38,352 bases of DNA from IMG/VR virus record IMGVR_UViG_3300047300_000245, positions 1-38,352 of that record, one strand, 5' to 3'. Position 1 is the first letter of the stretch; each line of letters starts with the position of its first letter. The DNA is from a virus. The translations under genes and the position numbers were made by a program. The notes under the pieces were generated by a model, which saw nothing but the letters and a program-made list of their open reading frames with translations, did not search any database and had not been told where the DNA came from. Shown in pieces: positions 11,518 to 37,625 of this stretch.

Positions 11518-11700
11518 ATGACGTTGACGCTATTAGAATTACAAGAGAGGCTGAAACGTTTAGATGAGCTATCTCTTCTGGAGTTACTAAACATAACTTC
11601 AGAGGAGATAGTCGAGATGTTTATAGACCGTATTGAAGATAACTTTGATCAACTGGTAGATGAAGTTGATTATGATGGAGAAGACGAAAACGATGAGTAG
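11518..11700 (+). CDS. Small acidic helical protein
   Basis: A 60-aa protein with about 22 Asp/Glu against 4 basic residues and Leu-rich helices (LSLLELLNITSEEIVEMF). Its end overlaps the reductase start. Small acidic proteins of this look often sit next to phage nucleotide genes. Function unknown. Confidence 0.6.
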   Translation: MTLTLLELQERLKRLDELSLLELLNITSEEIVEMFIDRIEDNFDQLVDEVDYDGEDENDE

Positions 11701-13600
11701 ATATGAATTAACACCCTACAATACGTTCATTGCTAAATCTAGGTACAGTCGTTACTTAGATGATCAAGGCAGACGTGAGCACTGGAATGAAACAGTAGCA
11801 CGTTACTTTGATTTCATGACAAAGAACCTTAAAGAAAAGAATAACTATACCTTAACACCTGAGCTACGTGCAGAGCTAGAAGATGCAGTAGTACACTTAG
11901 ATGTAGTACCTAGTATGAGAGCTATTATGACTGCAGGTGCAGCATTAGAGCGTCAGAACGTGGCTGCATTCAATTGTTCATATCTTCCTATCGATGACCC
12001 TAAAGCATTCGATGAAGCTATGTATATCTTGTTATGCGGTACTGGTGTAGGATTCTCAGTGGAGCAACAATATGTTAAGCAGTTACCTGAAGTACCGGAT
12101 AAGTTGTTTGATAGTGAGACTACTATTGTGGTTTCCGATAGTAAAGAAGGGTGGGCAAAGTCGCTTCGTCAACTACTCGCTCTTCTATACTCTGGCGAAG
12201 TTCCAAAGTTTGACCTCTCCAAAGTTCGTCCTGCGGGTGCAAGACTTAAGACGTTTGGAGGAAGAGCCTCCGGAGCTAAGCCTTTGGAAGACTTGTTCAG
12301 ATTTGTTATTAGTAAGTTCCGTGCCTCCACCGGTCGCAGGTTATCATCATTGGAGTGTCATGATATTCTGTGCAAAATCGGGGAAGTTGTTGTCGTGGGA
12401 GGGGTACGTAGATCTGCGATGATCTCATTGTCTGACTTGTCTGATGATAAAATGGCACATGCTAAAGCAGGATCATGGTGGGATGGACAAGGACAGAGAG
12501 CATTGGCTAACAACTCAGCAACATATACTGAGAAGCCAAGCATCGGTCAGTTCATGAGAGAGTGGACTAGTATTTATGAATCACATTCAGGTGAGAGAGG
12601 AATTTTTAATCGTGATGCATCACAGAAACAGGCTGCAAAGAATGGCAGACGAGACAGTACTTACGACTTTGGTACGAACCCTTGCTCTGAGATCATTCTT
12701 CGCCCTTATCAATTCTGTAATCTATCCTCTTGCATTGTTCGTAGTGATGATGATATGGCTAGTCTGGAACGTAAGATTAGGTTGGCTACGATTCTTGGAA
12801 CGTTTCAAGCAACACTAACTAACTTCCCTTACCTACGTAAGATTTGGCAAAAGAACACTGAAGAAGAAGCGTTGTTAGGTGTATCAATGACAGGTATCTT
12901 AGATAACTCTTTGTTGAATAACCCTGATGATATTGAATTACCTTTTAGATTGGAGAAGTTAAGAGATGTGGCTATCGGAACGAACAGAGAATTTGCTGCT
13001 GCTGTTGGTATTAATCAGTCTGTTGCTGTTACAGCTGTTAAACCTGAAGGTACAGTTTCTCAGCTATGCAGCACTGCAAGCGGTATCCATCCTCAGCATT
13101 CTAAGTTTTATATCAGACGTGTACGTGCAGATAACAAAGACCCGCTGACACAGTTCATGATTCAGTCAGGCTTCGTAGCTGAACCATGTGTGATGAAACC
13201 TGAGAGTACTACAGTGTTTTCATTCCCTGTGAAGGTAGCTGATGGAGCTTTGTTACGTGAAGAGTTGTCTGCTTTACAGCACTTGAAGTTATGGTTGTTG
13301 TTCCAACGTCATTACTGTGAACATAAACCTTCAGTAACTATCAGTGTTAAAGAAGATGAATGGATGGAAGTTGGAGCTTGGGTATGGGAACACTTTGATG
13401 AGTGTACAGGAGTATCATTCCTGCCTTATGATGGAGGTACTTATAGACAAGCACCGTATGAAGAGTGTGATGAAGAAGCTTATAATCGATTGAAGCTGTT
13501 ACAGCCTGAATCAATTGATTGGAGTAACTTTAAAGAGTATGATGATAACGTAGAAGGTGCTCAGATGTTATCTTGTACTGCAGGAGGATGTTCAATATGA
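11693..13600 (+). CDS. nrdJ: Class II ribonucleotide reductase (B12-type)
   Basis: About 635 aa, making deoxynucleotides from ribonucleotides. The active-site NPCSE has C331 as the presumed thiyl cysteine. C95 (FNCSY) and C342, 11 residues after C331, match the redox pair of the monomeric Lactobacillus enzyme, whose C408/C419 have the same spacing. The C-terminus ends CTAGGC (C628, C633), the C-x4-C shuttle of that class. No small-subunit gene is present, which fits an adenosylcobalamin-dependent enzyme. An upstream in-frame ATG at 11660 is possible; 11693 overlaps the previous stop. Codon use shifts at about 12120-12430. Confidence 0.85.
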   Translation: MSRYELTPYNTFIAKSRYSRYLDDQGRREHWNETVARYFDFMTKNLKEKNNYTLTPELRAELEDAVVHLDVVPSMRAIMTAGAALERQNVAAFNCSYLPIDDPKAFDEAMYILLCGTGVGFSVEQQYVKQLPEVPDKLFDSETTIVVSDSKEGWAKSLRQLLALLYSGEVPKFDLSKVRPAGARLKTFGGRASGAKPLEDLFRFVISKFRASTGRRLSSLECHDILCKIGEVVVVGGVRRSAMISLSDLSDDKMAHAKAGSWWDGQGQRALANNSATYTEKPSIGQFMREWTSIYESHSGERGIFNRDASQKQAAKNGRRDSTYDFGTNPCSEIILRPYQFCNLSSCIVRSDDDMASLERKIRLATILGTFQATLTNFPYLRKIWQKNTEEEALLGVSMTGILDNSLLNNPDDIELPFRLEKLRDVAIGTNREFAAAVGINQSVAVTAVKPEGTVSQLCSTASGIHPQHSKFYIRRVRADNKDPLTQFMIQSGFVAEPCVMKPESTTVFSFPVKVADGALLREELSALQHLKLWLLFQRHYCEHKPSVTISVKEDEWMEVGAWVWEHFDECTGVSFLPYDGGTYRQAPYEECDEEAYNRLKLLQPESIDWSNFKEYDDNVEGAQMLSCTAGGCSI

Positions 13601-23229: not shown

Positions 23230-23508
23230 TTACCATTTTACTTTATCAGCCCAATATGCCGCACTCATTTTACCTTTAGCTATGTTTTTAGCATGCCTAG
23301 CTTCAAAGCTTTTCTTACGTGCTTTCTCTGATTCTGTCTTAGGATTAGATCCTGCACCTTTAACACCTTGCTGACCAAAGCGAATAGTCTTAACTTGATC
23401 ACCTTCTTTAGCTACTACCACATGCGACTTAGTAGGATGGCTTGGGGTTGCTTTAGGTTTATTATATCCTGAAACACCGGCACGTTCTAGTCTAGAATCT
23501 TTTTTCAT
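23230..23508 (-). CDS. Conserved small basic protein
   Basis: A 92-aa Lys-rich protein with a pattern I recognise from phage and metagenome proteins of unknown function (GYNKPKATPSHPTKSHVVV, IRFGQQGVKG, FEARHAKNIAKGKMSAAYW; probably the DUF6321 type). Starts in ATGA overlap with the next basic protein gene. It could be packaged or bind nucleic acid, but this is not shown. Confidence 0.65.
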   Translation of the reverse strand: MKKDSRLERAGVSGYNKPKATPSHPTKSHVVVAKEGDQVKTIRFGQQGVKGAGSNPKTESEKARKKSFEARHAKNIAKGKMSAAYWADKVKW

Positions 23509-30889: not shown

Positions 30890-31795
30890 TTAAGCTGGTA
30901 CTGCTAATGCTACAGCAGAACCGTCACGCAACTCTTTAACACCGAAGATTGTATCTGCAGTGAATAAGTTGCCCAACCACTCTTGCTTGTACTGAGTTTG
31001 TGTACGAACAGCTTGTTGCTCAGCAAGAACTGCGAAGTCCTTATGACCTAACAAGCAGATACGATCACCGTCAGTAGCTGCGTCAGCGTTGCTAGTTACG
31101 AATACTGGAATACCGTAAACGTTACCAACTTCACCGTTGCGGATTGTGTTTGCATTGCCAGCTTCACCAACAAAAGCTTGCTCAGTGAAACGAGAAATAC
31201 CCATCAATGTGTTACGTGTTGATGGAGGAACGATCAAGAAACGACCATCCATTGGTACATCGTTGTCATCCAAACGTTGGATAGAGCGGCGGATAGCTGC
31301 ATCAGTCAATGCACCAGCTGTACCAACATAAGCAGTTGTACCGTCAGCACCTGAGTAAGCACCAGTGTAAGCAGCTGTACCGTCACCACCGTTAACACCA
31401 CGACCTAATTGAAGAATCATTGAGTCAACTTTACGAGCCAATGCATAACCAGCGTCATCAGTGTAGAACTGACGCATAGAAGCAAGAGCTTGAGTTTCAA
31501 CGATGTCTTCGATCAAGATTGAGTATTCCCAGTGTTGATCGATGTTTACTACAACTTCAGTTGCTGTATCTGTGTTCAATGTAACTTGAGTAGATGCAGC
31601 TTTAGCGTTTGCTGAACCACGACCCGGTTTTGGAATGTGAACTGAGTCACCTTTTTTACCACGGAAGTTCAACTTCTTGATTAAGTTTGCAGCGATCAGA
31701 TTTGCTTTGTATGTTGCAACAACCTCGTCTGACCAAATCTCTGGGATAAATTTATCACCAGTTGTTTTTGTTTGATGGTTAGTACCTAAAGCCAT
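30890..31795 (-). CDS. Major capsid protein
   Basis: A 301-aa protein. The pattern is typical of HK97-fold capsid proteins of aquatic podoviruses: KFIPEIWSDEVVATYKANLIAANLIKKL, KGDSVHIPKPGRG, and EQAFVGEAGNANTIRNGEVGNVYGIPVFVTSN near residues 208-240. It follows the scaffold gene, has AGGAG 8 nt upstream, and precedes a strong terminator, consistent with a highly expressed gene. Confidence 0.85.
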   Translation of the reverse strand: MALGTNHQTKTTGDKFIPEIWSDEVVATYKANLIAANLIKKLNFRGKKGDSVHIPKPGRGSANAKAASTQVTLNTDTATEVVVNIDQHWEYSILIEDIVETQALASMRQFYTDDAGYALARKVDSMILQLGRGVNGGDGTAAYTGAYSGADGTTAYVGTAGALTDAAIRRSIQRLDDNDVPMDGRFLIVPPSTRNTLMGISRFTEQAFVGEAGNANTIRNGEVGNVYGIPVFVTSNADAATDGDRICLLGHKDFAVLAEQQAVRTQTQYKQEWLGNLFTADTIFGVKELRDGSAVALAVPA

Positions 31796-33255: not shown

Positions 33256-35217
33256 TTATTTGTTCTTTGTAGCCATTTGAATCATGGCAATCTTCTCATT
33301 AGATTGAATATCAGCTTCTGTTAAGGCTAATTCAGCTACCTTAGCTCTCTTAGCAAAGTCAGATTCATCACGAGCACCACGAGAGATTGCTCCTAGCATC
33401 TTAGCTTCTACTTCGACAGGGATGTATTGAGTTTCAACACCAACCTGTTGAGCTTCAGCTTGTGCCTTAGCAGCTTCTGCTTGAGTCTTGTTAAACTGTG
33501 CTTGAGCTGTAGCAACTTGTAGCTGTTTCATCTGTTCTGCAACAGGATCAGGCTGACTCATTTGTTGTAATGTAGCAACAATCTCATCTCTGTTTGACAA
33601 GCTTGATGATTTAATAATACCTTGTAACAATACAGGGGTAATTGGGCTGCTACCTAGAGTCTGCATCAAGCCAATCATCTGTTGTTGTTCATATTCACGA
33701 GCAACCATACCCATAGTTGATAGAGGGATAAAGTCTACATCTTTAACTGGATAACGCTCAGGATCAAACTGCATGAATCTCCAAGCTGCTTTCTTAATAA
33801 ATGGTACAAGGAAGTCTTCTTGGAAATGAATCAAGGTACGCTTGTTCTTTTTCATCAATCCTGATAGAGCCATTGATAAACCCGCACCAGAGGCTTCACC
33901 AGCAGCTACTTGACCCGGCATAGCAGTGCTATCAATCGTGCCTGTGGCTTGTAATAACATAGCTTGGAAAGCATTAGCAGTCTGTAGGTTACCCGGATCT
34001 GTAGCACCAAACTTAAATGGCATCATAATCTCAGCTGGATTACCGTTAACCATGAAATTTTTACCTGCTTTTACTTCATACTTAGCACCACGTGGTAGAC
34101 GAGTAGCGTCCATAGCCATCATAGGAGCTGTTGTAAGAGCTAAAGAGTCTAGATGAGCACGTACTTGTGCATCCATCGCCTTTTGCATGTTATAGCCCTT
34201 CTCAGCAGTACCTCTACCCCAGAATCTGCCGGGCATAGAGTCAGCTTGATAAGCTACAACAGGTCTATCATTCATCATATAAGGTGATTTCTCAGCCTTA
34301 AGTAGGTGTTGACCGTCTGCAATAACAACAATAGCCTCTACAAGGTCAGAATAGTCGTCCATTGCTGTGTCTTCAGGGAACAAATCGACTACTTCACCGT
34401 CATTTTCTTCTAACTTCTCAATGTATTCGCGAGGAACTAAGCCATAATAACGAATAACTGGGATCTTACCATCAATAAAGTTAGATTCTTCTTGTACTGG
34501 TTCTAAATCTGATGAGTTATATGAGGGTGCAATGTCACATTTACGATAAACACCGTCTTCAATACCCTTAATAATGGTGTGGAAAGACATGTATTCTTCG
34601 ATTGCAACACCTAAAGAGTCCTCAATGCTTCGTGCATTAGGTTCAATTAAGAAGTTACGTGGGTTTACAGGATTTAAACTAACTAAAAACTTCTTCTTTT
34701 CCTGTACACCGATAGCTGCTACATCAGTTCCGGGGATAGGTTGTGTTGCAGGAGACAAAACTTTCTTCTCTTCAACAACAATTTCACCAATACCTGTACC
34801 ATATAGCTCAGCTAGTAATACAATTTCATCTATAGCACGTTTAACTTTAGTTTGTTTAAAGTCTTCATGCATTTGATTCTTGATAAGTGCTACATCTGTA
34901 GGATCTTGGTCTGCTCTGTCGTCTTGAATGTCAAAGAATTCACCACGTCCAAACACTGCTTCACTGATCTCAGCTTGCTTAGATTCAATTGCTTGTTGCA
35001 AAGCTGGAGTAATGATACGTGATCTTTCTGAGTCACGCATTCTATCAGCAGAATCCCAAATACCTCGCCATAAGCGTTCGTATTCTTCCCATGTCTTAGT
35101 GTAGTTTACATCCCTATGGTTTCTCCACTGGTCTGTGTGATACGAAACAAACTCTACAATCTCTTTGTCAGATTCTGTTTCAGTATACATATCTACGTTT
35201 GTTGGATTTTCTGCCAT
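33256..35217 (-). CDS. Portal protein
   Basis: A 653-aa protein. The N-terminal region has WEEYERLWRGIWDS and PALQQAIESKQAEISEAVFGRGEFF. The core has LAELYGTGIGEIVVEE, NPVNPRNFLIEPNA and PGRFWGRGTAEKGYNMQKAMDAQVRAHLDSL. The C-terminal 90 residues form a long Ala/Gln-rich helix. This is the P22/podovirus-type dodecameric portal through which DNA enters and leaves. It lies downstream of terminase as expected. Confidence 0.85.
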   Translation of the reverse strand: MAENPTNVDMYTETESDKEIVEFVSYHTDQWRNHRDVNYTKTWEEYERLWRGIWDSADRMRDSERSRIITPALQQAIESKQAEISEAVFGRGEFFDIQDDRADQDPTDVALIKNQMHEDFKQTKVKRAIDEIVLLAELYGTGIGEIVVEEKKVLSPATQPIPGTDVAAIGVQEKKKFLVSLNPVNPRNFLIEPNARSIEDSLGVAIEEYMSFHTIIKGIEDGVYRKCDIAPSYNSSDLEPVQEESNFIDGKIPVIRYYGLVPREYIEKLEENDGEVVDLFPEDTAMDDYSDLVEAIVVIADGQHLLKAEKSPYMMNDRPVVAYQADSMPGRFWGRGTAEKGYNMQKAMDAQVRAHLDSLALTTAPMMAMDATRLPRGAKYEVKAGKNFMVNGNPAEIMMPFKFGATDPGNLQTANAFQAMLLQATGTIDSTAMPGQVAAGEASGAGLSMALSGLMKKNKRTLIHFQEDFLVPFIKKAAWRFMQFDPERYPVKDVDFIPLSTMGMVAREYEQQQMIGLMQTLGSSPITPVLLQGIIKSSSLSNRDEIVATLQQMSQPDPVAEQMKQLQVATAQAQFNKTQAEAAKAQAEAQQVGVETQYIPVEVEAKMLGAISRGARDESDFAKRAKVAELALTEADIQSNEKIAMIQMATKNK

Positions 35218-35219
35218 GT

Positions 35220-36371
35220 TTATAGTCCTTGAATAGAAGATTGAGTAGGATCAGTATAAGCTAATCCTTTAAGTAGATCGCCTTTAACTTCTTGGAATCT
35301 AGATGGGTTCATCTCACCCGGTATGTTTCCTTGTGCAATCATGCGTTGACGTGCTGTATTTTCTGCTCTTTGAGCTGCAGTCATTTCTGAACTATTCATT
35401 GCTAAGTTAGCCCAGCCTTCACCTTCAACGTTTGTATATTTTTTAAATGCAGAACGATAACCTTCTTCTGCTAATGCTTTTGATTCTAATACACCACGTA
35501 GAGCAGGATATGCACCAGCTTTAGAGATAAACTTTTCAGCCATATCTTTGCTACCTAGTGTTCTAGATAGAACTTGTAGTGCATCTTCTGTTGGATTATC
35601 TGCAAGAGCTTTAATAGCTAACTGAGCATTGGCTGCATTGAAACCAACTTTAGGATTATCAGTTAACATCTTCACTAAGTCGTTACCAACTTGTGGACTC
35701 ATTAAAGCTTTGTCTAGGAATTTCTTACCTGCTTGATAGTCAGGTTCTTCTGAGAGTCTAAGAGCAAAGTTCTCACCATATGTTAAGCCTTCTTTAGCTT
35801 GTACAAAGTGTTGTACTTCATGGAGAACTGTTTTCTTAAGACCATTATCTTTAACGTAAGGATGTGCTCTATTGATTGTTAGTACGTTAGCTACTGGATC
35901 AAAACCACCTGCAGAATTAGAATTAGGTTCATCCTTAAACTTTAGTTTTACATCAGCGATATCAGGATAAGCATTTTCTAATAAGTCAGCTTTAAAGATC
36001 TCTGAGAAACCTGCTTCTTTTACTTTATTAATATCACGTCCTGAACGTACTCTTACTGCATCATCAGGAATCTCATACATTGCTTTGTTAGCGTTTGTAT
36101 CAATCTCTACACCTTTAGATAACCAGTCAGTGCTTCTTTCAAACTGAGTCTGTCCTAGCTGCTCTAAGTCCATACGAGCCATTGCTAAGTCTGCAGCTGA
36201 AACTCCTTGAGGCATACCAGCTTTCTCAAGATTACTTAAACCACCTTCACCAATCATCATCTTTGGTGTTAGGTCAGGAAACATACCACCTTCTAAAGGA
36301 TTAGTTTGTTTCAATCCTTGGAGCATGTCCGTAGGATCAATACCGAAAATACCTTTAACAATTTTTAACAT
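35220..36371 (-). CDS. HExxH-motif protein, putative metallopeptidase
   Basis: A 383-aa protein between large terminase and portal. The HEVQH motif is at 184-188 in LHEVQHFVQAKEG, and a possible third metal ligand lies in VEGEGW (E316 or E318). This resembles the peptidase-like domain found in large polyvalent phage proteins (LPD23 type, from memory). The N-terminal 90 residues are not conserved to my eye. It may be a virion-associated enzyme or act on the host. No classical prohead protease is recognised elsewhere. AGGA before the ATG. Confidence 0.6.
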   Translation of the reverse strand: MLKIVKGIFGIDPTDMLQGLKQTNPLEGGMFPDLTPKMMIGEGGLSNLEKAGMPQGVSAADLAMARMDLEQLGQTQFERSTDWLSKGVEIDTNANKAMYEIPDDAVRVRSGRDINKVKEAGFSEIFKADLLENAYPDIADVKLKFKDEPNSNSAGGFDPVANVLTINRAHPYVKDNGLKKTVLHEVQHFVQAKEGLTYGENFALRLSEEPDYQAGKKFLDKALMSPQVGNDLVKMLTDNPKVGFNAANAQLAIKALADNPTEDALQVLSRTLGSKDMAEKFISKAGAYPALRGVLESKALAEEGYRSAFKKYTNVEGEGWANLAMNSSEMTAAQRAENTARQRMIAQGNIPGEMNPSRFQEVKGDLLKGLAYTDPTQSSIQGL

Positions 36372-37625
36372 TTAATATCCTGATATCCAATCTAAGGGTT
36401 CAAGGTCTTCACTATTATCATCTGCAAAGTATGTAGTGACTGCGAGTTGATCAACATATGACAAAGCATCGATTAAGTCATCCTGTACTTGAGGAGTAGG
36501 GAACATTAACAACTGATCTCTAAACTCATCCCAATCTTCATCTTGATTCAGAGTTATCTTACCGTGCTCGAATCGTCCTTGTAATGACCAGACAATACGT
36601 TCTGTTTTCTTTTTACCACCGTGTGTTAAGTCAGTTATATGTGCGTAGACATTGTTTGCTCGCATCATATCGCTAAGATAAGGCATCACAGCATTTCTAG
36701 AAGTTCCTCTTTCAATTCCAGTGCCTACTGGTTGGAACTCTTTAATGTTCTTTAAAGTACGTTGAGCTGTCTCTTTAACATCCCATCGTCCATGTTCAAT
36801 CTTCTTTATAAACCAGTTACCATCATCAGTAACCTTAACTACTGCAATAGCAGACTGGTCTAGCTTCTTCTGTCTTGCTTGTGAGTAGTTCTCATTTAAG
36901 AACCCTGAGAAGTCTAATCCAATATAATAAACACCACCATCAGGTTCTTCACCATACTTTAACCAACTCTCTTTAAAGATGTCAGTACCAGCATTATCAA
37001 AACTAGCTTCGTATTCCTGCTTAAAAGCAAAACTACTTAATGTCTTTTTAGCACCTTCAATCTCTTTAGGATCAATCAGTGGATTATCCTTAGTAGTGAA
37101 GTGCCAGCTTTTCCATTCTTCGTCCGTACCATTCAGACCTAGGTTATACATGTCGTAGAACCAGTTACGTCCTTTAGGTGTACCAATAAATAAAGCATTA
37201 CCTTTTTTATCAGACAAAGCAGCACGTAGTACTTTTTCCCAAGTGTCAGCTTTGATGTCAGCTACCTCGTCCAATACTACGAATGTTAAACTAACACCAC
37301 GTAATGTATCAGGACGGTCAGCACCTCGAACATAAATCTTAGCACCATTAATCAATGTAATATCCATGTTGTTAACATGACTACCACTGATTACATCTCT
37401 TCCAAGATCCATTAATAGATCCCAGATAATCTGTCTAGCTTGTCCTTGAGTAGGAGCTACATACATCACTGCAGAGCCGGGAGGACACTTTAAACCCTCA
37501 ACCAACAACGCTACTGCAGACAGTCTAGACTTACCACAACGTCTACCAGCAACAATTACTTTAAATCTAGTCTTATCGCTGTAGACTTCTTTTTGCCAAG
37601 GCAACAGTTCAAAATTAAGATTCAT
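36372..37625 (-). CDS. Terminase large subunit
   Basis: A 417-aa DNA-packaging motor with ATPase and nuclease halves. Walker A is AGRRCGKS (26-33), Walker B is VVLDE (116-120, with E120 catalytic), and the coupling motif is GTPKG (148-152). The RNase H-like nuclease starts at GLDFS (D238) and ends with QDDLIDALSY. Length is typical for short podovirus terminases. It overlaps the small subunit gene by 11 nt. Confidence 0.9.
   Translation of the reverse strand: MNLNFELLPWQKEVYSDKTRFKVIVAGRRCGKSRLSAVALLVEGLKCPPGSAVMYVAPTQGQARQIIWDLLMDLGRDVISGSHVNNMDITLINGAKIYVRGADRPDTLRGVSLTFVVLDEVADIKADTWEKVLRAALSDKKGNALFIGTPKGRNWFYDMYNLGLNGTDEEWKSWHFTTKDNPLIDPKEIEGAKKTLSSFAFKQEYEASFDNAGTDIFKESWLKYGEEPDGGVYYIGLDFSGFLNENYSQARQKKLDQSAIAVVKVTDDGNWFIKKIEHGRWDVKETAQRTLKNIKEFQPVGTGIERGTSRNAVMPYLSDMMRANNVYAHITDLTHGGKKKTERIVWSLQGRFEHGKITLNQDEDWDEFRDQLLMFPTPQVQDDLIDALSYVDQLAVTTYFADDNSEDLEPLDWISGY

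What the first reader, a model, noticed from the sequence alone, without database searches (positions are those of the whole stretch)
35220..36371. HExxH protein between terminase and portal
HEVQH (residues 184-188) in a LHE-QHFVQ-EG context looks like a zinc metallopeptidase site. The position, inside the packaging module, is not the usual place of a lysis enzyme. It may be a virion-borne or maturation protease, or an effector delivered to the host.
Basis: partly seen in the sequence, partly recalled or inferred. Interest (0 to 1): 0.55.

Follow-up and report, generated by a model that had tools for sequence, protein, structure and literature searches.

The report
Swappable phage cargo gene: metal-dependent protease
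Between two packaging genes, a family of uncultured phages keeps a slot for exchangeable proteins, many of which end in the same short tag; in this phage the slot holds a predicted zinc protease that is probably carried in the virus particle and injected into the bacterium.

Summary
ORF 35220-36371(-), 383 aa, lies between TerL and an SU10-like portal. HEVQH (184-188) is kept in 43 of 43 distinct homologues from scans not selected on it. A conserved Glu (E318, GE..A) lies in a later helix, as in zincins of phage polyvalent proteins (hhalign 99.6%; AlphaFold pLDDT 83.7).

The gene sits in an exchangeable slot: relatives have it empty or filled by a methyltransferase, GNAT-like, ART-like, Cys-rich, HNH-like or other gene. 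Unrelated slot proteins share a short C-terminal tail (core roughly [YF]xDP[FM]..[ST]I): 26 of 28 last slot ORFs at unseen junctions against 0 of 278 background ORFs, most of the 28 from families already known. In both pairs compared, an extra domain was inserted before the tail.

Zincin-free relatives have the same capsid-protein starts; of 15 records without a slot zincin none has one elsewhere. This argues against a maturation protease. Best reading: a single-module virion cargo, injected as a protease effector. Packaging, cleavage and target are inferred.

The parts
35220..36371 (-). slot gene: 383-aa zincin protein between TerL and portal
36267..36371 (-). N-terminal segment, residues 1-35 (MLKIVKGIFGIDP...), low confidence in the model; a short [GK][LI]F[GRP] motif recurs in other enzyme-bearing slot families
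   Evidence: pLDDT <50 for residues 1-35; motif counts (pattern chosen after seeing the sequences)
35259..36266 (-). folded body, residues 36-371, zincin fold with a helical insert
35871..35948 (-). three-stranded sheet, residues 142-167
   Evidence: DSSP of model
35808..35822 (-). HEVQH, residues 184-188, in helix 178-194
35409..35423 (-). GEGWA, residues 317-321; E318 is the candidate third zinc ligand, in helix 316-327
   Evidence: invariant in A2; aligned with GEVEA/GEVQA of polyvalent zincins
35223..35258 (-). C-terminal tail, residues 372-383 (YTDPTQSSIQGL), shared with unrelated slot proteins
   Evidence: pLDDT <50 for 375-383
35226..35231 (-). CAAGGA inside the tail, likely ribosome-binding site of the portal gene (may explain the terminal Gly, not the DP..SI core)
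   Evidence: read from sequence
36372..37625 (-). terminase large subunit, upstream border of the slot
   Evidence: PF03237 8.3e-16, phrog_2 4.7e-47
33256..35217 (-). portal protein, downstream border of the slot
   Evidence: SU10_portal 2.5e-17, phrog_1216 3.7e-46
30890..31795 (-). major capsid protein, used as control for the maturation-protease reading
   Evidence: phrog_267 6.2e-53

Best explanation
The gene is the current occupant of an exchangeable cargo slot between TerL and portal. It is a single-module relative of the zincins found inside large phage polyvalent proteins. Proposed mechanism: (1) the protein is made late, with the packaging genes (inferred from gene order); (2) its flexible ends, chiefly the shared C-terminal tail and perhaps the N-terminal segment, dock it onto a head component (portal, scaffold or capsid) so that it is packaged (inferred); (3) it is ejected with the DNA (inferred); (4) in the cell the zincin, with Zn held by H184, H188 and E318 and with E185 as base, cleaves a host or defence protein and/or frees domains fused to it (inferred). 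Shown by computation: zincin family and predicted fold, slot, swapping, shared tail, tail kept at the C-terminus when domains are added, dispensability of the zincin. Not shown: packaging, ejection, proteolysis, target.
For: Zincin: invariant HExxH and GE..A; AlphaFold model pLDDT 83.7, pTM 0.78 with three strands, HExxH helix and a later Glu helix; hhalign to polyvalent zincins 99.6%, E 3.2e-24; 7 of the 12 Foldseek viral hits at E<=0.001 are named large polyvalent protein (E 3e-8 to 8e-6); zincins IrrE 3dte Z 5.2 and lethal factor 4xm6 Z 4.8 among the top VIA rows (weak). Slot: 134 distinct junctions, 36 empty; the portal tree needs 27 changes of slot state (least possible 12, shuffled mean 62.3); four empty/filled pairs with 89-99% identical DNA on both sides of the slot. 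Tail: 12 of 21 pairs among seven tail-bearing families have z 3.9-31.5 against shuffles; tail-less bodies of families 0, 1, 2, 7 and 8 show no blastp match better than E 0.01 to each other; third codon positions vary; 26 of 28 last slot ORFs at unseen junctions against 0 of 278 background ORFs; domains inserted between body and tail in L111 and L125. Cargo logic: modules of the zincin, the GNAT/ART N-terminal part and L306 recur in polyvalent proteins, a class whose authors infer packaging and injection (PMC5512222, passages).
Against: No virion proteomics and no experiment. The last residues of the tail overlap the portal Shine-Dalgarno, so part of the tail may be a cis-acting constraint. The tail follows position: inner ORFs lack it (7 Cys-rich; 0 of 8 inner ORFs). 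It is not universal: 6 of 12 last Cys-rich ORFs in the first set, the HNH-like ORFs, families 3, 5, 9 and 11, and L299 lack it, and the methyltransferase tail is weak (E 0.15 for G001; L265 E 0.017). Nine of 21 family pairs have z of 2.5 or less or fell outside the 25 printed pairs. The N-terminal motif was chosen after looking; Cys-rich and 82-85 aa families lack it. Twelve of 15 first-set families have no module in the polyvalent set. Pfam thresholds for DUF6782 and MPTase-PolyVal are missed. No PDB Foldseek match has E<0.001. Zinc geometry was not measured.
Confidence: 0.56

Rival explanations
1. Non-virion late counter-defence. The slot proteins are made with TerL and portal and protect them from host systems that sense portal or terminase; the tail binds the portal in the infected cell and the enzyme disarms the sensor there.
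For: Position exactly between TerL and portal; the tail is only on the ORF next to the portal gene. SpbK is activated by a phage portal protein (PMC11984713, passages). The authors of PMC9503650 (passages) offer this for ARTs near packaging genes. Avs sensing of terminase and portal is recalled, from no call.
Against: Related modules occur in polyvalent proteins whose inferred mode is injection. A G(L)FG.DP start is shared with a putative ejection-protein family (post hoc).
Confidence: 0.23
2. The tail is a by-product. DNA at the portal border is kept for translation coupling or as a recombination joint, and whichever ORF enters is fused to it; the zincin acts as an ordinary moron protein.
For: Terminal residues overlap AGGA before the portal ATG; only the last ORF of a slot carries the tail.
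Against: Empty slots have no tail yet keep the portal gene. Codons of the DP[FM] core differ in third positions across families. Several tail types follow the same core.
Confidence: 0.16
3. Capsid or prohead maturation protease, or other essential assembly protease.
For: Location in the packaging module; predicted peptidase.
Against: Same capsid-protein starts with or without the zincin; 15 of 24 records have no zincin, although some are fragments; slot content differs at near-identical portals.
Confidence: 0.03
4. A zincin fold acting by binding rather than cleavage, for example ArdC-like anti-restriction. This can overlap with the cargo reading.
For: ArdC (6sna) is rank 8 by Foldseek (E 1.5, not significant); PMC5512222 section 8 says ArdC carries a C-terminal MPTase and is transferred full length.
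Against: Catalytic residues invariant in 35 rows; the ArdC match is weak.
Confidence: 0.12

Closest known systems
Zincin-like MPTase domain of phage polyvalent proteins (Iyer et al. 2017, PMC5512222)
   Same: HExxH helix, Glu in a second helix, three-stranded sheet, variable insert between the two helices, profile homology
   Different: Here a stand-alone 383-aa protein in an exchangeable slot with shared ends, not one domain of a protein of about 1000-4000 aa; Pfam thresholds for PF18818 and PF20573 are missed
MuF-effector head proteins (described in PMC5512222 and PMC9503650 passages)
   Same: Variable enzymatic domains joined to a constant element and encoded among packaging genes
   Different: No MuF family match; the constant parts are short, low-confidence ends; the slot lies before the portal gene (MuF after the portal is recalled, from no call)
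T4 internal proteins and P1 DarB with N-terminal capsid targeting sequence (PMC9024508 passages)
   Same: Short terminal sequence that sends cargo into heads; DarB's first 30 residues suffice for a reporter
   Different: Here the strongest shared element is C-terminal and its function is untested
IrrE/PprI, M90 and lethal-factor-type zincins
   Same: Zincin fold; VIA rows IrrE 3dte Z 5.2, LF 4xm6 Z 4.8; M90 hit E 1.3e-5, just below its cut-off, for the relative L245
   Different: Z near the noise level, 97-115 residues aligned; different insert and ends

Membership tests
Polyvalent-protein zincin (MPTase) domain | HExxH in the first C-terminal helix | tested here: met
   residues 184-188 in helix 178-194; invariant
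Polyvalent-protein zincin (MPTase) domain | conserved Glu in a second C-terminal helix | tested here: met
   E318 in helix 316-327; invariant; aligned with polyvalent GE..A
Polyvalent-protein zincin (MPTase) domain | three-stranded sheet with preceding helix | tested here: met
   E142-146, E155-158, E163-167 after helices 129-134 and 136-140
Polyvalent-protein zincin (MPTase) domain | sequence homology to domains inside polyvalent proteins | tested here: met
   hhalign 99.6%, E 3.2e-24; blastp 1e-14 for member L150
Polyvalent-protein zincin (MPTase) domain | Zn bound by the two His and the Glu | not testable with these tools
   no coordinates released; no metal assay
Polyvalent protein (whole-protein class) | 2-15 domains in one polypeptide | tested here: not met
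   window protein shows one folded body and no second family match; fusions occur in relatives such as L095 and L111
Pfam MPTase-PolyVal PF18818 / DUF6782 PF20573 | curated gathering score | tested here: not met
   12.6 of 27.5 and 15.7 of 27 bits
LPD23 | match to an LPD23 model | not tested
   no such model was returned by the Pfam scans; no separate LPD23 profile at hand
Prohead maturation protease | present in phages that share the capsid protein | tested here: not met
MuF-effector proteins | MuF domain | tested here: not met
   no MuF family at E<=1 for the window protein in Pfam or PHROGs
Capsid-targeted internal protein | terminal sequence sufficient for packaging | not testable with these tools
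   shared tail shown, function unknown
IrrE/PprI family | fold similarity over the catalytic domain | tested here: inconclusive
   VIA Z 5.2, 97 residues, rmsd 3.5

The most novel reading that the evidence does not exclude
A widespread uncultured podovirus-like group runs a plug-in cargo system: one slot between TerL and portal accepts unrelated enzymes, and a short C-terminal tail, with an N-terminal [GK][LI]F[GRP] element also seen on putative ejection proteins, is the address label that loads whatever sits there into the virion for injection. The polyvalent proteins of other phages would be the same kind of modules strung together.
Probability: 0.4. Interest if true: 0.82.

Novelty: new variant of a known kind. 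Interest (0 to 1): 0.62.

Why it matters
If the tail is a loading signal, it gives a simple sequence handle to predict injected effectors in uncultured phages, including proteins with no recognisable domain, and a small peptide that could be tested for directing reporters into phage heads. It turns the question of which phage proteins enter the host with the DNA into a directly testable one: look for tail-bearing slot proteins in virions. The zincin itself is a predicted protease whose target may be a host defence or regulatory protein.

Tried and rejected
Capsid maturation protease: rejected. Lysis enzyme: no cell-wall hydrolase family for this protein in Pfam or PHROGs at E<=1. The first AlphaFold run with 5 sequences gave pLDDT 57 and was set aside. 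Foldseek against PDB gave no E below 0.001, and most VIA rows are generic helical bundles on residues 199-315. Sequence searches of PDB gave nothing convincing. A search of 50,697 phage records gave no homologue of the window protein at E 0.01 and one weak hit for L093. N-terminal motif as a formal test: the pattern was set after seeing sequences; it hits 48 of 55 zincins, all of the few methyltransferase, GNAT-like and ART-like ORFs, but only 6 of 28 new last ORFs and 28 of 480 distinct other N-termini (16 of these are TerL, 2 are slot ORFs of the full records), so it is a lead only. ART-like (L041) is by eye from a recalled motif: Pfam and PHROGs gave no ART match. GNAT is below the Pfam threshold (E 0.0024). 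HNH-like is mostly by eye (Pfam HNH E 0.68 for L032). I first took families 2 and 8 for homologous by eye; tail-less profiles give only probability 16.9, E 0.0015, so this is left open. Literature searches listed no paper on this slot or tail; they are word searches in an open-licence library, and one search showed 12 of 38 papers.

Rows dropped: identical junctions (187 to 134; 108 to 54); loci lacking TerL or portal; the tree used loci up to L164 with portal of at least 300 aa (112 rows with the window). L142 has a 1084-base slot without an ORF of at least 60 aa. One search printed 25 of 78 family pairs. Five of the ten last ORFs labelled NEW are 47-48 aa C-terminal pieces of the Cys-rich type, so the new tail-bearing bodies are two kinds, L266/L309 and L306/L311 (L306 and L311 match each other at E 8.6e-9); L299 is new without tail.

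Full report
OBSERVATION. The ORF at 35220-36371 (-) is real, 383 aa, and lies between TerL (36372-37625, PF03237, phrog_2) and a portal protein (33256-35217, SU10_portal, phrog_1216). HEVQH is at 184-188. It is the only HExxH among 54 window ORFs of at least 80 aa; shuffled copies of this protein show it with frequency 0.0015. The window is one 38,352-base virus record. Its portal, capsid protein and DNA polymerase match isolates only distantly (all best places below 60% identity).

FAMILY. The protein has no homologue in 50,697 phage records at E 0.01. In IMG/VR it has many. In the first clustering 43 of 43 distinct homologues, from scans not selected on HExxH, keep HExxH. In the 35 rows of A2 H184, E185, Q187, H188, Q191, E194, G199, G317, E318 and A321 are invariant. 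The GE..A motif with E318 lies about 130 residues after HExxH. Pfam gives only weak DUF6782 (E 0.009) and MPTase-PolyVal (0.14) hits, below their cut-offs; 23 of 35 members hit DUF6782 at E up to 1, best 3.6e-5.

HOMOLOGY TO POLYVALENT PROTEINS. Alignment-based scans reached proteins of about 1000-4000 aa with the same domain inside. Profile against profile, the slot zincins and ten such domains match with probability 99.6 and E 3.2e-24, HExQH on HExQH and GE on GE. Spacing between HExxH and GE varies widely in the polyvalent set, as the 2017 polyvalent paper describes for this domain (variable inserts between the two helices; section 8 read).

STRUCTURE. With 43 sequences AlphaFold2 gives pLDDT 83.7 and pTM 0.78. 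Strands 142-146, 155-158 and 163-167 follow helices 129-134 and 136-140; HExxH lies in helix 178-194; helices fill 202-313; E318 lies in helix 316-327. This fits the published description of the domain. The only segments of three or more residues under pLDDT 50 are 1-35 and 375-383. Foldseek's viral library gives 12 matches at E<=0.001, 7 of them named large polyvalent protein; the top one (2.3e-9) is named crystallin beta/gamma motif-containing. PDB matches are weak: IrrE Z 5.2, PprI 4.9, lethal factor 4.8, among generic helical bundles. Zinc distances could not be measured.

THE SLOT. The scans gave 187 loci with both genes, 134 after removing identical junctions. In 36 of 134 the slot is empty (gap under 60 bases). 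In the others the ORFs are zincins (55), Cys-rich proteins (19), an 82-85 aa family (15), HNH-like nucleases (3), methyltransferases (2), GNAT-like (2), an ART-like protein (1) and other small families; the zincin count is inflated by zincin-based scans. In the 112-row portal tree, restricted to loci up to L164 and the window (zincin 36, empty 36), the slot state needs 27 changes (least possible 12, shuffled mean 62.3), and the zincin label 7, at least 4 of them forced by supported branches. Four near-isogenic pairs show the exchange directly: L043 and L047, L067 and L055, L018 and L020, L039 and L041 have 89-99% identical DNA on both sides, with a whole ORF (GNAT-like, GNAT-like, 121 aa, ART-like) present or absent between TerL stop and portal start. 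Of 24 records scanned with the zincin profile, 10 match; one of these (G017) matches only by the last 40 profile positions, in its slot protein; the other 14 have no match. Records can be fragments.

THE TAIL. Last slot ORFs of different families end alike: YTDPTQSSIQGL (window), YADPFKNSIKSSIEEL (Cys-rich), FADPFATSIDDTTKED (82 aa), YIDPFGNTISDTVR (GNAT-like), YRDPFADTTR (ART-like), ANPFEMAVPQSTIPGI (144 aa). Against shuffled tails, 12 of the 21 pairs among the seven families with such ends (0, 1, 2, 4, 7, 8, 10) have z 3.9-31.5; two more have 2.5 and 2.0, and seven fell outside the 25 of 78 pairs printed. With the last 28 residues removed, families 0, 1, 2, 7 and 8 have no blastp match to each other better than E 0.01 (2 and 8: 0.015); 7 and 10 share a 39-residue N-terminal module, and 4 matches the methyltransferase fused to some zincins (46% identity). 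A profile of the tails, searched in 608 ORF ends of seven records plus the window, has five hits above its threshold, all slot ORFs; it misses the slot ORFs of G001 (E 0.15) and G018, and G012's slot is empty (the model was built from such ORFs). The fairer test came afterwards: in 54 unseen junctions 28 had an occupied slot; 26 of 28 last ORFs match at E 0.01 or better (misses L265 at 0.017 and L299 at 1.7), 0 of 8 inner ORFs and 0 of 278 background ORFs (E-values are for sets of 36 and 278 sequences). Most of the 28 belong to known families; the new tail-bearing bodies are L266/L309 and L306/L311.

TAIL AS PROTEIN, NOT DNA. Codons of the DP[FM] core differ in third positions, empty slots lack it, and where a methyltransferase (L125) or an unknown domain of about 100 aa (L111) has been added to a zincin, the insertion lies between body and tail, so the tail stays last. 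The final Gly-containing residues overlap a Shine-Dalgarno for the portal gene, so those residues alone may be explained by translation. Inner Cys-rich ORFs lack the tail when a zincin follows (7 loci); as last ORF the Cys-rich protein has it in 6 of 12 cases in the first set and 12 of 12 in the new set. This position rule is compatible with docking to the portal made next, but also with a cis constraint; it is the main reason the confidence is moderate.

N-TERMINUS. Enzyme-bearing slot families begin with a short element of the type [GK][LI]F[GRP] (48 of 55 zincins by the pattern; methyltransferase, GNAT-like, ART-like with a GTG start, L306, L311), while Cys-rich and 82-85 aa families do not. 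A similar G[LI][FL]G.DP start occurs on proteins that, where position was seen (L251, L257), lie next to the large internal virion protein: 8 distinct N-termini among 4407 ORFs carry the pattern in the first 40 residues, 3 zincins and 5 of this putative ejection-protein family. The window's own protein at that place lacks it. The pattern was chosen after looking.

MECHANISM. The capsid protein has the same short starts in 17 zincin-bearing and 35 zincin-free loci, and the zincin is absent from relatives, so it is not a maturation protease. Single slot modules recur inside polyvalent proteins: zincin, the GNAT/ART N-terminal module (59-70% identity) and the L306 body (35%); the other 12 first-set families have no hit there (the L166-L186 and L231-L248 sets were fetched with the first two modules, so only the L306 match is independent). 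Polyvalent phage proteins are inferred by their authors to be packaged and injected (PMC5512222, passages). A precedent for a terminal packaging signal is P1 DarB, whose first 30 residues suffice (PMC9024508, passages). I favour a virion-packaged, injected zincin effector at about 0.56, with late counter-defence for portal and TerL as the main rival at 0.23, in line with a proposal in PMC9503650 and with SpbK sensing a portal (PMC11984713) (passages).

NOVELTY. The domain is known; the single-module, end-tagged, exchangeable slot was not among the papers listed by the searches made (open-licence library, word search). I rate it a new variant of a known kind.

Noticed in passing
window 23230-23508 (-): A 92-aa protein ending KMSAAYWADKVKW resembles slot family 3 (L050, L063, L066, L075, L079), which in those records sits between TerL and portal; here it lies in the tail region.
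   Followed up: no
L166-L186: Polyvalent proteins of about 1000-2000 aa with repeated linkers of the type R(A/N)xGSPEEGE between modules and a common C-terminus GGMIERQxxDNRRYM; the linkers could be cleavage sites for their own zincins.
   Followed up: partly
L032 365-889, L062 5291-5965, L085 1758-2231: HNH-endonuclease-like ORFs occupy the same slot without the tail; they may be mobile elements using the site.
   Followed up: no
L142 slot, 1084 bases: Slot without any ORF of at least 60 aa, possibly a broken occupant or a sequencing error.
   Followed up: no
L306 94-708: A second, different HExxH protein (204 aa, VLHEMTH) precedes the tail-bearing ORF in the same slot; weak SprT-like hit, E 0.088.
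   Followed up: no
L251 5962-6936, L253 7240-8343, L256 14469-15494, L257 17241-17855, L260 8932-10191: Proteins, at least in L251 and L257 next to the large internal virion protein, start with G(L)(F/L)G..DP like the window-clade zincin N-terminus.
   Followed up: partly
window 11660-13600 (+): Ribonucleotide reductase-like protein, 646 aa, with patchy Pfam matches including a B12-dependent insertion domain.
   Followed up: no
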